DNA from: Clostridiales bacterium
GTDB taxonomy: Bacteria > Bacillota > Clostridia > Tissierellales > GPF-1
Reading direction: 5' to 3'
DNA: 64,000 bases
NCBI GenBank assembly: GCA_013619125.1
Contig: JABXKS010000043.1
Location: forward strand, 1 to 64,000
Under the pieces are notes generated by a model. The model was given only the letters and a program-made list of their open reading frames with translations. It was not told the DNA's origin and did no database searches. Made by a program: the position numbers and the translations under genes. Below, one piece after another: positions 2,302 through 60,583 of this stretch. Each line of letters begins with the position of its first letter. The first letter of the stretch is position 1.

Positions 2302-2985
2302 ATGATCACAAAAGAAGACAAACCAATCTATTTCAAAGTAATTGAATATATTAAAAAACAAGTGGAAAGTGGACAATTGCTGAAAGGGGATAAAATTCCA
2401 ACTGAGAGGCAATTGGTTGAACTCCTAGGGATTGGAAGAAATTCGATTCGAGAGGCACTAAAAGTATTGGATACGATTGGAATTGTTGATCGAAGACAAG
2501 GGGATGGCTCTTACATTCGAGAGGAGTTTTACAATTGGTTTTCTGAACCGATGAGGATTGCATTTATGTTGTCAGAAACAAACAAGAAAGAGATTTTCGA
2601 ATTTCGAAATATGATCGAAGTCGAGATTGCTACGCTTGCTGCTCAGCGGATCACGGATGAAGAAATTGAAGAATTGAAAGTGTGCCATGACAAGTTAATC
2701 GAAAAAAATGAAGAACAAATCAATGCAAAATACGACAAAATCTTTCATAGCTTGCTTGCTAAAGCATCGAAGAATATGATTATCATCAATTCGTACAACT
2801 CGATGGATTATATGTTGGATCAATTTATTTACAATATACGGGTGGATGCATTCAATAGCGAAGGTAGAGAATTAGCATCGAGAATTCATCATGAAATTTT
2901 TGAAGCGATCATTCACCGAAATCCGAAACTGGCGCGAGAAGCGATGAAGAAGCATATGGATGTTATAAAAAGATATTATAATTAG
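2302..2985 (+). CDS. GntR/FadR-family regulator with FCD ligand domain (first of two)
   Basis: A 227-residue transcription regulator. Residues about 8-75 form the GntR winged helix, with the hallmarks GDKIPTERQLVELLGIGRNSIREALK and GDGSYIREE. Residues about 95-220 are an all-helical FCD domain, with the metal/ligand pattern D..FH (YDKIFHSLLAKASKN), HHEIF and KKHM. FCD regulators typically sense hydroxy acids or sugar acids and control the adjacent catabolic operon. It starts at ATG after TTAGGAGTG. A close paralogue of identical length follows 14 bases later, and the likely targets are the TGGTnnnACCA sites at 3760-3824. Confidence 0.92.
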   Translation: MITKEDKPIYFKVIEYIKKQVESGQLLKGDKIPTERQLVELLGIGRNSIREALKVLDTIGIVDRRQGDGSYIREEFYNWFSEPMRIAFMLSETNKKEIFEFRNMIEVEIATLAAQRITDEEIEELKVCHDKLIEKNEEQINAKYDKIFHSLLAKASKNMIIINSYNSMDYMLDQFIYNIRVDAFNSEGRELASRIHHEIFEAIIHRNPKLAREAMKKHMDVIKRYYN

Positions 2986-2999
2986 TCGGGGGGATTTAT

Positions 3000-3683
3000 T
3001 TGTTTAGTGAGAATTCAAACAAAGCATATCACCAAGTCATTGCATATTTGATTAATCAAATCAGAGAACAAAGAATTAAGAAGGGGGATAAATTGCCGAC
3101 TGAAAGAGAGTTGTCGGTCTCTTTGAATGTAAGCAGAGCCTCAGTTAGAGAAGCCTATAAAGTGTTTCATGCTTTAGGGCTTGTGGTAAATATTCCAGGA
3201 AGCGGTACATATGTGAGGGAAGAAGTGGATGAATGGCTTAGTGAGCCAATGGAAATTATTTTCAAATTATCTGGAATCAAAATGGAAGAGGTTTTTGAGT
3301 TTAGAAAAATGATTGAAGTTGAAACGGCTACGCTTGCAGCGGAAAGCATTACGGAATTAGAGTTAACTCAGCTTACAGAATGCTATGAGAACTTGCTCAA
3401 TGCGGAAAGCGAGATTGAGAAGTCTAAGTATGATAAAAGATTTCACTATATCATCGCAAAAGCCTCCAAGAATCATATTATCTTCAATTCCTATAATGCA
3501 ATGTCTTCTATGCTCGAGGTGTTTACCTATGACATCAGAGCGACTGTTTTAGAGACAGAGGGAGAAGAAATCCTTCAGAAGATTCACGATGAGATCTATC
3601 GTGCGATTATGAATCGGGATCAAGAAAATGCAAGAAAGAGTATGAAAGCGCATATGAATATGATCAGCAAATATTTCCAATAA
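3000..3683 (+). CDS. GntR/FadR-family regulator with FCD ligand domain (second of two)
   Basis: A 227-residue paralogue of the preceding gene, alignable along its whole length (GDKLPTERELSVSLNVSRAS, VFEFRKMIEVETATLAAESI, YDKRFHYIIAKASKN). The start is TTG at 3000 behind GGGGGGAT; no ATG fits, and TTG restores the exact length of the paralogue. The recognition helix differs (NVSRASVREA against GIGRNSIREA), so the two may bind related but distinct half-sites or form heterodimers. It is followed by a terminator, so the regulators form a unit separate from the etf operon. Confidence 0.92.
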   Translation: MFSENSNKAYHQVIAYLINQIREQRIKKGDKLPTERELSVSLNVSRASVREAYKVFHALGLVVNIPGSGTYVREEVDEWLSEPMEIIFKLSGIKMEEVFEFRKMIEVETATLAAESITELELTQLTECYENLLNAESEIEKSKYDKRFHYIIAKASKNHIIFNSYNAMSSMLEVFTYDIRATVLETEGEEILQKIHDEIYRAIMNRDQENARKSMKAHMNMISKYFQ

Positions 3684-3742: not shown

Positions 3743-3759
3743 GTGTTAAAAAATAAACT

Positions 3760-3774
3760 ATTGGTAGAACCATT
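3760..3774 (+). promoter_or_regulatory. FadR/GntR-type operator O1
   Basis: ATTGGTAGAACCATT contains TGGTAGAACCA, the TGGTnnnACCA palindrome known for FCD-type GntR regulators such as PdhR, LldR and FadR. It directly abuts the -35 element of the etf operon. It is also the exact reverse complement of O2, 50 bp away. Confidence 0.8.
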
Positions 3775-3801
3775 TACATTGCAGTGGGGTGGTGATATTC
3801 T
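3773..3801 (+). promoter_or_regulatory. Promoter of the etf/FAD-oxidase operon
   Basis: TTTACA (3773-3778), a 17-base spacer and TATTCT (3796-3801). The start of transcription would fall near 3808, inside or next to operator O2, so both operators would block polymerase. Confidence 0.7.
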
Positions 3802-3809
3802 AAAACTAC

Positions 3810-3824
3810 AATGGTTCTACCAAT
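3810..3824 (+). promoter_or_regulatory. FadR/GntR-type operator O2
   Basis: AATGGTTCTACCAAT contains TGGTTCTACCA and lies over the expected transcription start. The centres of O1 and O2 (3767 and 3817) are 50 bp apart, close to five helical turns, which would suit cooperative binding or a small loop. Confidence 0.8.
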
Positions 3825-3872: not shown

Positions 3873-4676
3873 ATGAGAATTATTGTTCTGATGAAACAAG
3901 TTCCAGACATGGAAAAAGTGAAGTTTGACAGAGAAAAAGGCGTCATTGACAGAAAATCAGCGGGAACAGAAATAAATCCATTTGATTTAAATGCATTGGA
4001 AGCGGCTGTACAGATAAAAGAAACCCGTGGTGCAGAAGTCGTTGCGGTCTGCATGGGTCCACCAAGTGCGGAAGTTGCGTTGAAAGAAGCAATTTCAAGG
4101 GGCGCCGATCGAGGCATTCTACTAAGTGATCGGAAATTTGGCGGATCGGATGTAAAAGCGACGGCGTACACGTTAGCGGCAGGAATTAAAGCCATTGGGG
4201 AGTATGATTTAGTCTTTGCGGGGATACAGACGGTTGATGGAGATACGGGGCAGGTCGGTGCCGAAGTTGCGCAATTTTTAGATATCCCTCACATTTATTT
4301 TGTTGAGAAGATCGTCGAAGCGAACGAAGAGAGCGTAACCGTTGTTACAGATATTTGGGACGGCGTTTATGTGAAAAAGATGAAACTTCCAGGACTGGTT
4401 ACGGTGACTAAAGATATTAATTCACCAAGACTTCCCGCTTTCAAGGATAAAATGAAGTCAAGAAAAGCGGTGATCCCAGCGTGGGGAATGGATGAACTTG
4501 CTGAGTTTTTGGATGAAACAGAAACTGGGCGTAAAGGCTCCGCAACAATGGTGAAAAAAATAGAAGTGCCGAAAGCTGTACACCGAAAAGGATTGCTGTG
4601 GCGAGATAACATGGACACTGCATTGAATGAGTTTATGGATATTTTGGTAGATAAGAAAGTGATCGAGGTGGAATAG
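3873..4676 (+). CDS. etfB: Electron transfer flavoprotein beta subunit
   Basis: A 267-residue EtfB. Visible hallmarks are the N-terminus MRIIVLMKQVPD, NPFDLNALEAAV and the nucleotide-binding segment DGDTGQVGAEVA. In electron-bifurcating ETFs this last segment reads much the same and helps bind the second FAD, so a bifurcating role is plausible but unproven. The ATG at 3873 follows AGGAGGGGG; the ATG at 3834 would add 13 residues upstream of that ribosome site and is rejected. It is the first gene of the operon and its stop abuts etfA directly. With EtfA and the FAD oxidase at 6950 it resembles the Ldh-EtfAB complex of acetogens. Confidence 0.95.
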   Translation: MRIIVLMKQVPDMEKVKFDREKGVIDRKSAGTEINPFDLNALEAAVQIKETRGAEVVAVCMGPPSAEVALKEAISRGADRGILLSDRKFGGSDVKATAYTLAAGIKAIGEYDLVFAGIQTVDGDTGQVGAEVAQFLDIPHIYFVEKIVEANEESVTVVTDIWDGVYVKKMKLPGLVTVTKDINSPRLPAFKDKMKSRKAVIPAWGMDELAEFLDETETGRKGSATMVKKIEVPKAVHRKGLLWRDNMDTALNEFMDILVDKKVIEVE

Positions 4677-5663
4677 ATGAAAAATTATAGCGGTGTTATG
4701 GTTTTTGTTGAACAAAAGAACAAGGAAATACATAGAGTTTCATACGAGTTATTAGGAAAGGCAAGGGAGCTTGCCGATCAAATCAACGAAGAGGTCGTTT
4801 GCTGCCTATGCGGACCGAGTGAAATTGATGCGAATGAATTGATCTATCGCGGAGCGGACAAGGTATTTCATGTGCAGGACGAGGAAATTTTTGGTAATCC
4901 TGAAGTGATGACCTACGTAGAAAATATAGTGAAAATCATTGAGGAAAAGAAGCCTGAAATCTGTCTTTTTGGGGCAACCAGTTTTGGCAGATCCATAGCG
5001 CCAAGGGTAGCGGCAACACTAAAATGTGGACTTACCGCAGATTGTACGGGTCTTGCTATCGATGAGGAAGACATGAAATTGGTTCAAATTCGACCGGCAT
5101 TCAGTGAAAATATTTTGGCGCATATCAAATCGCAATACTTGCCGCAGATGGCCACGGTTCGATATAAGGAATTTGATGAAGCGAAACGGGATGAATCAAA
5201 AACGGGAGAGATCATCAATTTTTCATCGGTCAAGATCAAGAACAATCCCATTGAAGTTCTTGAAGAGATTACCGAAGAGGTCTTTAATATTACGGATGCG
5301 CGTGTAGTTGTATCGGCAGGAAAAGGATTGAAAAGCCCAGAAGACTTTAAAATGATTGAAGAATTGGCTGCCGTTTTAGGTGGCGTGGTGGGTTCGTCTA
5401 GACCTTTGGTAGAGGATGGATTTATTTCAAAGGCACACCAAGTTGGATATAGTGGAAATCGAGTAAAACCGAACTTGTACATCGCATGTGGTATTTCTGG
5501 TGCACCACAGCATCAGGCCGGTATGAAAGAAGCAGACATGATCTTGGCGATCAATTCAGATCCTTCCGCACCGATTTTCAATATCGCGGATTATGGAATT
5601 GTTGGGGACATATACGAGATTGTACCGCAAATGATCGAAAAAATAAAAAACAAAAAGGCATAA
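4677..5663 (+). CDS. etfA: Electron transfer flavoprotein alpha subunit
   Basis: A 328-residue EtfA starting at the base after the etfB stop, so translation is probably coupled. The C-terminal FAD-binding domain is intact: GGVVGSSRPLVEDGF, KAHQVGYSGNRVKP, YIACGISGAPQHQAGM and INSDPSAPIFNIADYGIVGD. There is no N-terminal ferredoxin-like extension of the kind reported for some lactate-dehydrogenase-linked EtfA proteins. It carries electrons from the FAD oxidase to ferredoxin or NAD-linked acceptors depending on whether the complex bifurcates. Confidence 0.95.
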   Translation: MKNYSGVMVFVEQKNKEIHRVSYELLGKARELADQINEEVVCCLCGPSEIDANELIYRGADKVFHVQDEEIFGNPEVMTYVENIVKIIEEKKPEICLFGATSFGRSIAPRVAATLKCGLTADCTGLAIDEEDMKLVQIRPAFSENILAHIKSQYLPQMATVRYKEFDEAKRDESKTGEIINFSSVKIKNNPIEVLEEITEEVFNITDARVVVSAGKGLKSPEDFKMIEELAAVLGGVVGSSRPLVEDGFISKAHQVGYSGNRVKPNLYIACGISGAPQHQAGMKEADMILAINSDPSAPIFNIADYGIVGDIYEIVPQMIEKIKNKKA

Positions 5664-5744: not shown

Positions 5745-6920
5745 ATGGAAAAGAAAAAATTGATGCCGGCATTTTTCGCGGTAGCATTCGTCTGGTTTAC
5801 CACGCACTTTGGCGGTGGATTCGCATCGGGTCGACAGGTTGTTCAATACTATGTTGGTTATGGCTGGTATGCATCGTTTTTACCGATCGTATCGCAGGCT
5901 CTTGAGGCAGTCGTATTCTATTATGCTTGGAAATTTGCAATCGAGAGAAAGAAATTCGATTATCGCAGCTGGACGTTAGATTTTTATAAGCCCGTTGAAA
6001 AGGTTATGGCACCAGCGTTTGAACTTATTTTTCAATTGATTTTAGTCACCGCAACAGCCGTTGCATTTGCAACTGGTGGAGCGACGATTACAAAAGTATT
6101 TGGAACAAGCTATCTGATCAATACATTTGTTATTGCATTGGCAATGTTACTTTTAACCATATTTGGAGCCGCGCTCGTAAGAAAAGCGGCATCTTTTATC
6201 GCGATCGCCATCATCCTAGGGGTTATTGTGATTTACGTACCGAATATCGTGGCCAATTGGGACGCGATTACAGGGAATATCGCAGCATTGAAATCGGGAG
6301 TAATCGTCAATGATGCGACATTCGGACAGGCATTATGGAAAACAATTGTATACGCAGGTTTCCAAGCCAGCTGCTTGGGCGCGTACTTGGCCCACTCCAA
6401 TGCATTGAAAGATTTGAGTGATGTAAAAAAAGCTGCTACTTGGGGATTTGCTATCAATGCATCAATATTGATGATGTCAACATTGGGCATCATGGCATTC
6501 TACCAAGACGGTATCTTAACAGAAGCGGTTCCAGCATTGTATGTCGTGATGAATGGCGTGGGTTCCGCATGGATGACACCACTGATTTCCATTTTAATTA
6601 TTTTGGGTGCCGTATCGACCGGAGTCAATCTGATTTACGGAACAACGAGCAGAATTGTGAACTTTGTTTCCAGAAATGATACGGAAGAAGTTAAAAAGAA
6701 AATGGAGACCAAAAGAAGCGTTGTCGTATCTTTTGCTTACGTGGCAGCGACTTGGATGATTGCGCAGTTTGGTTTGATTCCATTGATTGCAAAAGGATAC
6801 GGAACATTGGGATATATCGCAGTATTTGTTATTATTATTCCAGTCATCTTCAGAGGAATTGTTGGATGGAAGAAAATTGATGGTGGCGCAGCAGGTCAAT
6901 CTCAAGAGAAAATATCATAA
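5745..6920 (+). CDS. YkvI-like LeuT-fold membrane transporter
   Basis: A 391-residue polytopic membrane protein with about ten hydrophobic segments. The start THFGGGFASGRQVVQYYV, with a glycine-rich break in the first helix, is typical of the YkvI/COG3949 group of LeuT-fold transporters. The ATG at 5745 follows GGAGGT; an in-frame TTG at 5733 lies within that site. Its place between etfA and the FAD oxidase suggests that it imports the operon substrate, where related operons encode a lactate permease. The substrate is therefore uncertain: a hydroxy acid or an amino-acid derivative. Confidence 0.8.
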   Translation: MEKKKLMPAFFAVAFVWFTTHFGGGFASGRQVVQYYVGYGWYASFLPIVSQALEAVVFYYAWKFAIERKKFDYRSWTLDFYKPVEKVMAPAFELIFQLILVTATAVAFATGGATITKVFGTSYLINTFVIALAMLLLTIFGAALVRKAASFIAIAIILGVIVIYVPNIVANWDAITGNIAALKSGVIVNDATFGQALWKTIVYAGFQASCLGAYLAHSNALKDLSDVKKAATWGFAINASILMMSTLGIMAFYQDGILTEAVPALYVVMNGVGSAWMTPLISILIILGAVSTGVNLIYGTTSRIVNFVSRNDTEEVKKKMETKRSVVVSFAYVAATWMIAQFGLIPLIAKGYGTLGYIAVFVIIIPVIFRGIVGWKKIDGGAAGQSQEKIS

Positions 6921-6949: not shown

Positions 6950-8350
6950 ATGGCAAATAAAATTACAGCAGGATTAATAGGTGAGTTAAAAGGAATTACA
7001 GGTGAAGACTGGGTCGTAGCAGATTTGTCTCAGATGCAGAGCTATCTATATGACGAGACTGAGGTGAAAATTCGCCCGGTTGCATCGGAAGATTGCGTTG
7101 TTGTGAAACCAGGCACAGCAGAGGAAGTTTCTGAGATTGTGAAACTGGCGAATCGGCATCTTGTACCTGTAGTTCCCCGAGGTGGGGGAACGGGTCTTTG
7201 TGGAGCGGCAATTCCTACACAGTCAAGTATCGTCTTGTCTTTGGAACGGCTCAACAAACTCGTTGAATATGATGAAAAAAACATTATGATTACAGTTGAA
7301 TCCGGTGTTACCTTAGAAGGTTTATTGGAAGAACTGAAAGATCACGACAAAGTATTCTTCCCCGTTCATCCCGGCGATGAAGGGGCACAAATCGGTGGCA
7401 TGGTGGCTGAAAACGCAGGCGGCGTAAGAGCGGTGAAGCATGGCATTATGAGAAACCATATCAAAGGACTTGAGGTAGTCTTGCCAACAGGTGAACTGGT
7501 ACAATTAGGTGGCAAACTGATCAAGAATAATATGGGGTATGATTTGCTTCATATGATGATTGGCAGCGAAGGAACCCTGGGCATTGTTACGAAAGCGACA
7601 CTGAAACTCTACGCAAAGAATCCTTGCATTGGAACCTTGTTGGTATCTTTTGATTCTACGGAAGCTGCGTCTGATGTTGTACCGATGATTCTTCAAGCAG
7701 GGATTACACCCCTTGCCATTGAATACATGGATCGTGAAGTAGCGATTGAAGCAGCCAATCATATCGGTCAACCGTATCCAGCTAAAAACGGATCAGCAGA
7801 TTTAATGTTTATCCTTGACGAGGCTACAGAAGATGATTTGTATGAGAAGTGCGGTAGAATCGTAGAAATGTGTGAGGAAAATGGAGCCGTCGACAGTTTG
7901 ATTGCAGAAACGACGAAGGACCAGAGAGCTTTGCTTGAAATTCGGAGTAATGTATATACAGCCTATAAGGAAAACGTGGCAGATGCATTGGATATCGCGG
8001 TACCGTCAGGTTCCGTACCGGATATGTTGAAAGACATCAATCGGATTGCGGGGAAATACAATACAACCTCACCAGCTGTTGGCCATATCGCTGATGGGAA
8101 TGTTCATAACTTCTTAATGCTTGATAAGGGCGAATTGCCGGTATATCTCGATGAGATGAGAGAAGAAATGTACGCAGCGGCAATCAGTTATGGGGGAACC
8201 GTTACAGCAGAGCATGGAACGGGTAAAACAAGGAAGAAACATATGACACAACAGTTTTCGCCTCGAGAAATTGAGATCATGGAAAATATCAAAAAAGTTT
8301 TTGATCCCAATGGCATCTTGAACCCTGGAGCATGCTACCATACAAAGTAG
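6950..8350 (+). CDS. FAD-linked 2-hydroxyacid oxidase/dehydrogenase (GlcD/LctD type)
   Basis: A 466-residue flavoprotein. The N-terminal PCMH-type FAD domain is marked by VVPRGGGTGLCGAAIP and by GGMVAENAGGVRAVKHG and GSEGTLGIVTKATLKLY. The C-terminal domain has the signatures GHIADGNVHNF, EHGTGKTRKKHM and FDPNGILNPG. The family oxidises D-lactate, glycolate or related 2-hydroxy acids. With EtfAB alongside, the electron acceptor is probably the ETF and the enzyme may be the dehydrogenase of a bifurcating Ldh-Etf complex. Start ATG after GGATGGAGG. No terminator is obvious after the gene. Confidence 0.92.
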   Translation: MANKITAGLIGELKGITGEDWVVADLSQMQSYLYDETEVKIRPVASEDCVVVKPGTAEEVSEIVKLANRHLVPVVPRGGGTGLCGAAIPTQSSIVLSLERLNKLVEYDEKNIMITVESGVTLEGLLEELKDHDKVFFPVHPGDEGAQIGGMVAENAGGVRAVKHGIMRNHIKGLEVVLPTGELVQLGGKLIKNNMGYDLLHMMIGSEGTLGIVTKATLKLYAKNPCIGTLLVSFDSTEAASDVVPMILQAGITPLAIEYMDREVAIEAANHIGQPYPAKNGSADLMFILDEATEDDLYEKCGRIVEMCEENGAVDSLIAETTKDQRALLEIRSNVYTAYKENVADALDIAVPSGSVPDMLKDINRIAGKYNTTSPAVGHIADGNVHNFLMLDKGELPVYLDEMREEMYAAAISYGGTVTAEHGTGKTRKKHMTQQFSPREIEIMENIKKVFDPNGILNPGACYHTK

Positions 8351-43027: not shown

Positions 43028-43063
43028 AAACAGAGGATTGAACATATGTTCAATCCTCTGTTT
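43028..43063. terminator. Bidirectional terminator between convergent genes
   Basis: AAACAGAGGATTGAAC and GTTCAATCCTCTGTTT form a perfect 16-base stem with a four-base loop. It is symmetric and serves the PAP2 gene and the PatB gene. Confidence 0.9.
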
Positions 43064-51017: not shown

Positions 51018-51055
51018 AAAAAATGCGTACGGAGAATTTTCCGTACGCATTTTTT
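51018..51055 (-). terminator. Terminator of the Lrp-type regulator gene
   Basis: AAAAAATGCGTACGGA and TCCGTACGCATTTTTT form a perfect 16-base stem. The stop codon of the minus-strand gene (51054-51056) is at its edge. Confidence 0.9.
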
Positions 51056-60537: not shown

Positions 60538-60583
60538 TTCAACTAGCCGCAATTTTTAGAATTAAAATTTGCGGCTAGTTGAA
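60538..60583 (+). other. Long hairpin between the second deiminase and its permease
   Basis: TTCAACTAGCCGCAA and TTGCGGCTAGTTGAA are perfect 15-base arms around a short AT-rich loop. No T-run follows. It is probably an mRNA processing or stability element that sets different levels of deiminase and permease. Confidence 0.6.

What the first reader, a model, noticed from the sequence alone, without database searches (positions are those of the whole stretch)
3760..3824. Twin TGGTnnnACCA operators bracketing a promoter with 50-bp spacing
The two 15-base sites are exact reverse complements. One touches the -35 and the other covers the transcription start, and they sit beside two paralogous FCD regulators. 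This suggests that each paralogue, or a heterodimer, binds one site.
Basis: partly seen in the sequence, partly recalled or inferred. Interest (0 to 1): 0.6.

Follow-up and report, generated by a model that had tools for sequence, protein, structure and literature searches.

The report
Lopsided operators for paired regulators
Two matching DNA docking sites flank the switch of an electron-transfer gene cluster that probably oxidises a hydroxy acid; their conserved lopsidedness, and a relative in which the two neighbouring regulator genes are fused into one, suggest that a mixed pair of sister proteins controls it rather than each protein taking its own site.

Summary
ATTGGTAGAACCATT (3760-3774) and AATGGTTCTACCAAT (3810-3824) are exact reverse complements, 50 bp apart. 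They bracket a TTTACA-17-TATTCT promoter of etfB-etfA-transporter-FAD oxidase, just after two tandem FCD/GntR paralogues (R1, R2; 46% identical).

The sites keep the FadR-family TGGT-N3-ACCA frame, but their centre is lopsided: AGA/TCT in 15 of 16 exact sites at R1/R2-type promoters. Sites of related single regulators use TGGT[A/C] in 111 of 112 half-sites. Both window sites are the same sequence, so 'one paralogue per site' is unlikely. One R1/R2 heterodimer per site fits better: R1 and R2 come from one duplication and occur together wherever contigs reach far enough; in one relative they are fused in one 463-aa frame; and R1's recognition residue (Asn) goes with the A half in single regulators.

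Twin sites and 50-bp spacing are not general: related promoters carry one to four sites, spaced 30 to 80 bp. A conserved Rex-like box abuts site 1.

Heterodimerisation, repression and the effector (a 2-hydroxy acid such as lactate) are inferred. New variant of a known kind.

The parts
2302..2985 (+). R1: GntR (wHTH) + FCD regulator, recognition helix GRNSIRE
   Evidence: ORF; PF00392 + PF07729; R1 clade in tree
3000..3683 (+). R2: GntR + FCD regulator, TTG start, recognition helix SRASVRE; 46% identical to R1
3743..3760 (+). Rex-like box GTGTTAAAAAATAAACTA (11/14 to TTGTTAANNNNTTAACAA); a similar box lies at the same position in the related promoters
   Evidence: a Rex-type DNA-binding domain gene is in the genome; inferred, weak in single promoters
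3760..3774 (+). O1, ATTGGTAGAACCATT, half-sites TGGTA (left) and TGGTT (right), overlaps the -35
3773..3778 (+). -35 TTTACA, invariant in eight related promoters
3796..3801 (+). -10 TATTCT, 17-bp spacer
3810..3824 (-). O2, reverse complement of O1, covers the inferred start of transcription
3873..4676 (+). etfB (electron transfer flavoprotein, beta)
   Evidence: PF01012; start chosen by the ribosome-binding site AGGAGG
4677..5663 (+). etfA (electron transfer flavoprotein, alpha)
   Evidence: PF01012 + PF00766
5745..6920 (+). membrane protein, YkvI-like transporter (name from memory; no Pfam or NCBIfam match)
   Evidence: homologue behind the same operator type in Dethiosulfatibacter aminovorans
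6950..8350 (+). FAD-linked 2-hydroxy-acid oxidase, GlcD/Etf-linked LDH type
   Evidence: PF01565 + PF02913; GlcD 352 bits, below the equivalog cut-off

Best explanation
The two sites are operators of an LldR/LctA-type (FadR subfamily) FCD regulator system that controls an Etf-linked 2-hydroxy-acid oxidation operon (etfB-etfA-transporter-FAD oxidase). Most likely R1 and R2 act as a heterodimer. In each operator the R1 subunit (Asn at the key recognition-helix position) reads the TGGTA half and R2 reads the TGGTT half, so the same heterodimer binds O1 and O2. Bound at O1 it covers the -35, and bound at O2 it covers the start point, so the promoter is shut. An effector (probably the 2-hydroxy-acid substrate, such as lactate or a relative, held in the FCD pockets) releases it. 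A Rex-like box upstream of O1 would add redox control. Shown: sequences, positions, conservation, asymmetry, co-occurrence, common origin of the pair, the fused gene. Inferred: heterodimerisation, repression, effector, Rex.
For: 1) Centre AGA/TCT in 15 of 16 exact TGGTNNNACCA sites at R1/R2-type promoters (the other is AGG), across four genera. T as the fifth half-site base: 13 of 28 halves beside R1/R2 pairs against 1 of 112 beside single regulators (Fisher p = 6.5e-10, treating sites as independent, which they are not fully). 2) No R1/R2 site is A/A or T/T. 3) In single regulators the residue aligned with FadR Thr46 goes with the base: Asn 4/4 sites A/A, Ala 18/20 C/C, Thr mixed A/C; R1 has invariant Asn there, R2 mostly Ala. 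A published correlation of Asn with A/T at this position points the same way (PMC4494728). 4) R1 and R2 form two sister clades (support 94 and 98, joint 93) from one duplication, found together, in the same order, in all loci whose contigs reach far enough. 5) In JAABRS010000146.1 (L071) R1 and R2 are one open frame of 463 aa with no stop and no usable start for R2; AlphaFold2 gives two complete GntR-FCD units, pLDDT 81, pTM 0.77, with FCD-regulator matches for both halves. 6) A search for the site in D. aminovorans led to a distant etfB-etfA-transporter operon like the window's, with the same promoter layout.
Against: No biochemistry. R2 of G045 (the fused one) has Asn, not Ala, at the key position, yet its sites stay AGA, so the residue code explains R1 but not R2 fully. 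Ala goes with C, not T, in single regulators. The sites are related by descent, so the number of independent cases is small (about three to five). D. aminovorans carries a frame-shifted R1 copy, though a second intact pair exists. The fusion rests on one metagenome-assembled genome. The AF2 alignment was shallow (8 rows), and contacts between the halves could not be inspected. O1 is degenerate in D. aminovorans and G070, so the two-site arrangement is not essential there.
Confidence: 0.58

Rival explanations
1. Both paralogues form homodimers that compete for, or share, both sites (for example two effectors feeding one promoter). The AGA centre is then a compromise or a DNA-shape preference.
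For: Both keep full wHTH and FCD domains and the FCD histidines. Single relatives bind as homodimers to the same frame, on general knowledge of the family. Individual GntR-family sites often deviate from perfect symmetry (PMC4494728).
Against: Single relatives with the R1-type Asn have A/A sites (4/4), and no R1/R2 site is A/A. The same asymmetric centre is kept in sites of different position and orientation. Fusion in one relative.
Confidence: 0.27
2. One reading: each paralogue binds one of the two sites, R1 at one and R2 at the other.
For: Two regulators and two sites in three genomes.
Against: The sites are the same sequence on opposite strands. Related R1/R2 promoters have one to four sites. 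Twin sites also occur with one regulator.
Confidence: 0.05
3. Only one of the two regulators (as a homodimer) controls this promoter. The other is an antagonist or acts elsewhere.
For: D. aminovorans has a broken R1 next to one R2, so R2 may work alone there, although an intact pair is also present.
Against: The pair is kept together while each member has diverged to 47-64% identity between genera; no genome with only one of the two was seen among 249 genomes of the order, apart from contigs that end inside the pair.
Confidence: 0.1

Closest known systems
LctA/LldR-type FCD regulators of Etf-linked lactate dehydrogenase (lct) operons, e.g. Acetobacterium
   Same: GntR+FCD protein beside etfB-etfA-FAD oxidase, with a TGGT-N3-ACCA operator between them (Acetobacterium loci among L072-L083). 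The window's own genome has such a single-regulator operon too (L051).
   Different: Two regulators instead of one; centre AGA instead of M-N-K; FAD oxidase only 33-38% identical to the canonical one; YkvI-like membrane protein in the operon (the lactate permease of the canonical operon is from memory).
E. coli ExuR/UxuR (FCD paralogues reported to form heterodimers)
   Same: Paralogous GntR-family regulators with reported interaction and heterodimers (PMC9369180, citing Ritzenthaler 1985 and Tutukina 2016).
   Different: ExuR and UxuR are described there as having cross-regulated targets; here the pair is tandem, co-occurring, fused in one relative, and its operator is asymmetric.
E. coli LldR, PdhR, FadR
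   Same: Best NCBIfam match of both proteins is LldR (129 and 121 bits); same operator frame.
   Different: Far below the LldR equivalog cut-off of 311 bits.
Rex
   Same: GTTAA of the left half-box at a fixed place upstream of O1 in eight promoters; Rex-type domain in the genome.
   Different: Right half degenerate; binding untested.

Membership tests
FadR subfamily of GntR regulators (FCD) | N-terminal GntR wHTH (PF00392) and C-terminal FCD (PF07729) | tested here: met
   Both proteins, above the curated cut-offs
FadR subfamily of GntR regulators (FCD) | FCD Asp/His set that binds metal (identity of ligands from memory) | tested here: met
   D145, H149, H196, H218 kept in the R1 and in the R2 alignments
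FadR-subfamily operator | TKGT/ACMA boxes with GT and AC 3 nt apart (PMC4494728) | tested here: met
FadR-subfamily operator | GTM-N-KAC: A or C after GT on both halves (PMC4494728) | tested here: not met
   One half is TGGTT in 15 of 16 R1/R2 sites
LldR equivalog | NCBIfam NF007741 cut-off 311 bits | tested here: not met
   129 and 121 bits
Etf-linked LDH (lct) operon | etfB, etfA and FAD-linked oxidase in one operon | tested here: met
Etf-linked LDH (lct) operon | substrate is lactate | not testable with these tools
   Only family-level similarity (GlcD type)
Heterodimeric FCD regulators (ExuR/UxuR kind) | physical heterodimer of two paralogues | not testable with these tools
   Indirect: fusion, asymmetric operator; AF2 of the fusion pTM 0.77 without interface data
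Rex box | TTGTTAANNNNTTAACAA | tested here: inconclusive
   9 (counted by hand, G021) to 12 of 14 in eight promoters at one position; random sequence reaches 11 or more in 1.6%

The most novel reading that the evidence does not exclude
R1 and R2 are an obligate heterodimeric FCD/GntR regulator that evolved by tandem duplication from an LctA-like homodimer. One half of its operator was re-specified (TGGTA + TGGTT), giving an orthogonal site that avoids cross-talk with the canonical LctA-type regulator still present in the same genome. In one lineage the pair became a single-chain dimer.
Probability: 0.5. Interest if true: 0.62.

Novelty: new variant of a known kind. Interest (0 to 1): 0.5.

Why it matters
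If true, it is a clean natural case of how a duplicated repressor escapes cross-talk: the host keeps a canonical single LctA-type regulator with C/C-type sites, while the duplicated pair reads an asymmetric site. It gives a predictive rule (AGA centre) that already found a dispersed target operon in Dethiosulfatibacter, and a natural single-chain dimer to test. It also points to a separate, uncharacterised Etf-linked hydroxy-acid oxidase with an unfamiliar type of transporter.

Tried and rejected
Motif rarity alone: rejected as evidence, since TGGTNNNACCA is no commoner than its reversed control in the genome. One site per paralogue: rejected, see above. Conserved 50-bp looping geometry: rejected as a general feature, since spacings are 50 (three genomes), 53/61/61, 80/60 and 30, and two D. 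aminovorans promoters have one good site. Autoregulation by the same site: no AGA-type site with up to 2 mismatches upstream of R1 in window or G002. Hit in G007: coding sequence, chance. Extra AGA sites in D. aminovorans near a cupin gene and near rocD: no clear link, possibly chance. Riboswitch or other known RNA: no Rfam match in the window. Mixed R1+R2 alignments for AF2 mis-threaded the repeats and were replaced by R2-only and R1-only alignments (pTM 0.77 and 0.68). Further R1/R2 pairs in samples of the class and phylum: none at clade-level scores. Literature searches for heterodimeric FCD regulators led only to ExuR/UxuR.

Full report
What is there. The window holds two tandem genes for GntR regulators with FCD domains, R1 (2302-2985) and R2 (3000-3683), 46% identical without gaps. 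They are followed by a 189-bp gap and then by etfB, etfA, a membrane protein without Pfam match, and a FAD-linked oxidase of the GlcD / Etf-linked LDH type. The gap carries ATTGGTAGAACCATT at 3760-3774 and its exact reverse complement at 3810-3824. A promoter TTTACA-17-TATTCT lies between them. The core motif on its own is not unusual for this genome (54 places against 60 for the control), but the paired 15-mers are.

Conservation. In the same-genus genome G002 the sites and the -35 are identical, while the -35/-10 spacer and third codon positions have drifted. Scans of the order (249 genomes), samples of class and phylum, and a genome-collection scan with names found the R1/R2 pair in G002, in Dethiosulfatibacter aminovorans DSM 17477 (G065), and in MAGs G021 (Tissierellales) and G045 (Clostridia). 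G070 (Dethiosulfatibacter sp.) has R2 with part of R1, and G054 has a piece of R2; both are cut by their contig ends. Outside the genus the associated FAD oxidase is 55-57% identical to the window's where measured (93% in G002). Eight promoters align with an invariant TTTACA and a -10 at about 17 bp.

Number and spacing of sites. Window, G002 and G021: two inverted sites, 50 bp apart. G045: four sites in one orientation, 53, 61 and 61 bp apart. G054: three, 80 and 60 bp apart. G070: two, both downstream of the -10, 30 bp apart. D. aminovorans: one good site in each of two promoters. Single-regulator relatives also show twin sites (43, 48, 62, 69 and 83 bp). The twin layout is therefore neither fixed nor tied to having two regulators, which argues against 'one paralogue per site'.

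Asymmetry. A palindrome with a 3-base centre has two half-sites TGGTx. In 56 sites near single regulators x is A or C in 111 of 112 halves, as the published FadR-subfamily consensus GTM-N-KAC says (PMC4494728); the lone T comes from a distant, long-branched protein. In the R1/R2 loci 13 of 14 sites (15 of 16 with the two in D. aminovorans) combine one A half with one T half, and one combines A with C. Even the middle base is kept. This holds at sites of different position and orientation, so it is not just descent of one site. The simplest cause is an asymmetric protein, that is, a heterodimer.

Which half for which protein. Among single regulators the residue aligned with FadR Thr46 predicts x: Asn gives A/A (4 of 4 sites), Ala gives C/C (18 of 20), Thr is mixed. 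R1 has Asn in every ortholog, and R2 has Ala in all but G045. R1 on the TGGTA half is therefore reasonably supported. R2 on TGGTT is by elimination, and the Asn in R2 of G045 is an unexplained exception.

Pairing. R1s and R2s form two sister clades from one duplication (support 94, 98 and 93). In G045 (JAABRS010000146.1) the two genes are one frame of 463 codons, from a GTG at 1168 to the stop at 2557-2559, with no in-frame start codon for R2. In the other complete pairs a stop and a short gap separate them (G021: one TAA in the same frame). AlphaFold2 on the fusion gives two complete GntR-FCD units at pLDDT 81 and pTM 0.77 (0.68 with the other alignment). The PDB matches are FCD regulators. 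No interface could be inspected, so the model is compatible with a single-chain dimer but does not show it.

Regulon. In D. aminovorans the site search led to an etfB-etfA-transporter operon about 32 kb from the FAD oxidase gene, with the same promoter layout and a TGGTTCTACCA site; the oxidase has its own site. So the four functions are tied together by the operator even where the genes are apart. A one-mismatch site precedes a membrane-protein / M20 hydrolase cluster there. The window's genome also has a canonical single-regulator etf-oxidase operon with C/C-type sites (L051). An altered operator would keep the two circuits apart.

Mechanism. O1 overlaps the -35 and O2 covers the inferred start, so bound regulator should block RNA polymerase, and release by a 2-hydroxy acid would induce the operon. 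This follows general knowledge of LldR/LctA regulators and is not shown here. A Rex-like box ends where O1 begins; its left half is recognisable at the same place in all eight promoters, and a Rex-type gene exists in the genome. Redox input is plausible for an NAD-linked Etf/oxidase.

Verdict. Observation confirmed. It is a new variant of a known kind (FadR-subfamily regulation of lct-type operons), with a testable and somewhat surprising twist.

Noticed in passing
window 3743-3760: Rex-like box GTGTTAAAAAATAAACTA abutting O1; a similar box sits at the same position in the other R1/R2-type promoters.
   Followed up: partly
L071 1168-2559: R1 and R2 are fused in one 463-aa open reading frame in MAG contig JAABRS010000146.1.
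   Followed up: yes
L047 3090-3753: D. aminovorans carries a frame-shifted R1 copy beside an intact R2, and a second intact R1/R2 pair about 11 kb downstream.
   Followed up: partly
L051 (G000:C111:15000-30000): A second, canonical single-regulator etf/FAD-oxidase operon with TGGTCTGACCA and TGGTCCGACCA sites in the same genome as the window.
   Followed up: partly
window 5745-6920: Membrane protein without Pfam or NCBIfam match (YkvI-like by recall), linked to the Etf genes in two genera.
   Followed up: no
L180 1435-1515: Two GGTAGAACCA-type sites about 65 bp apart in D. aminovorans between a rocD-like aminotransferase and a solute symporter; meaning unknown.
   Followed up: no
window 43028-43063, 51018-51055, 60538-60583: Other exact inverted repeats of 15 bases or more with short loops, possibly terminators.
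   Followed up: no
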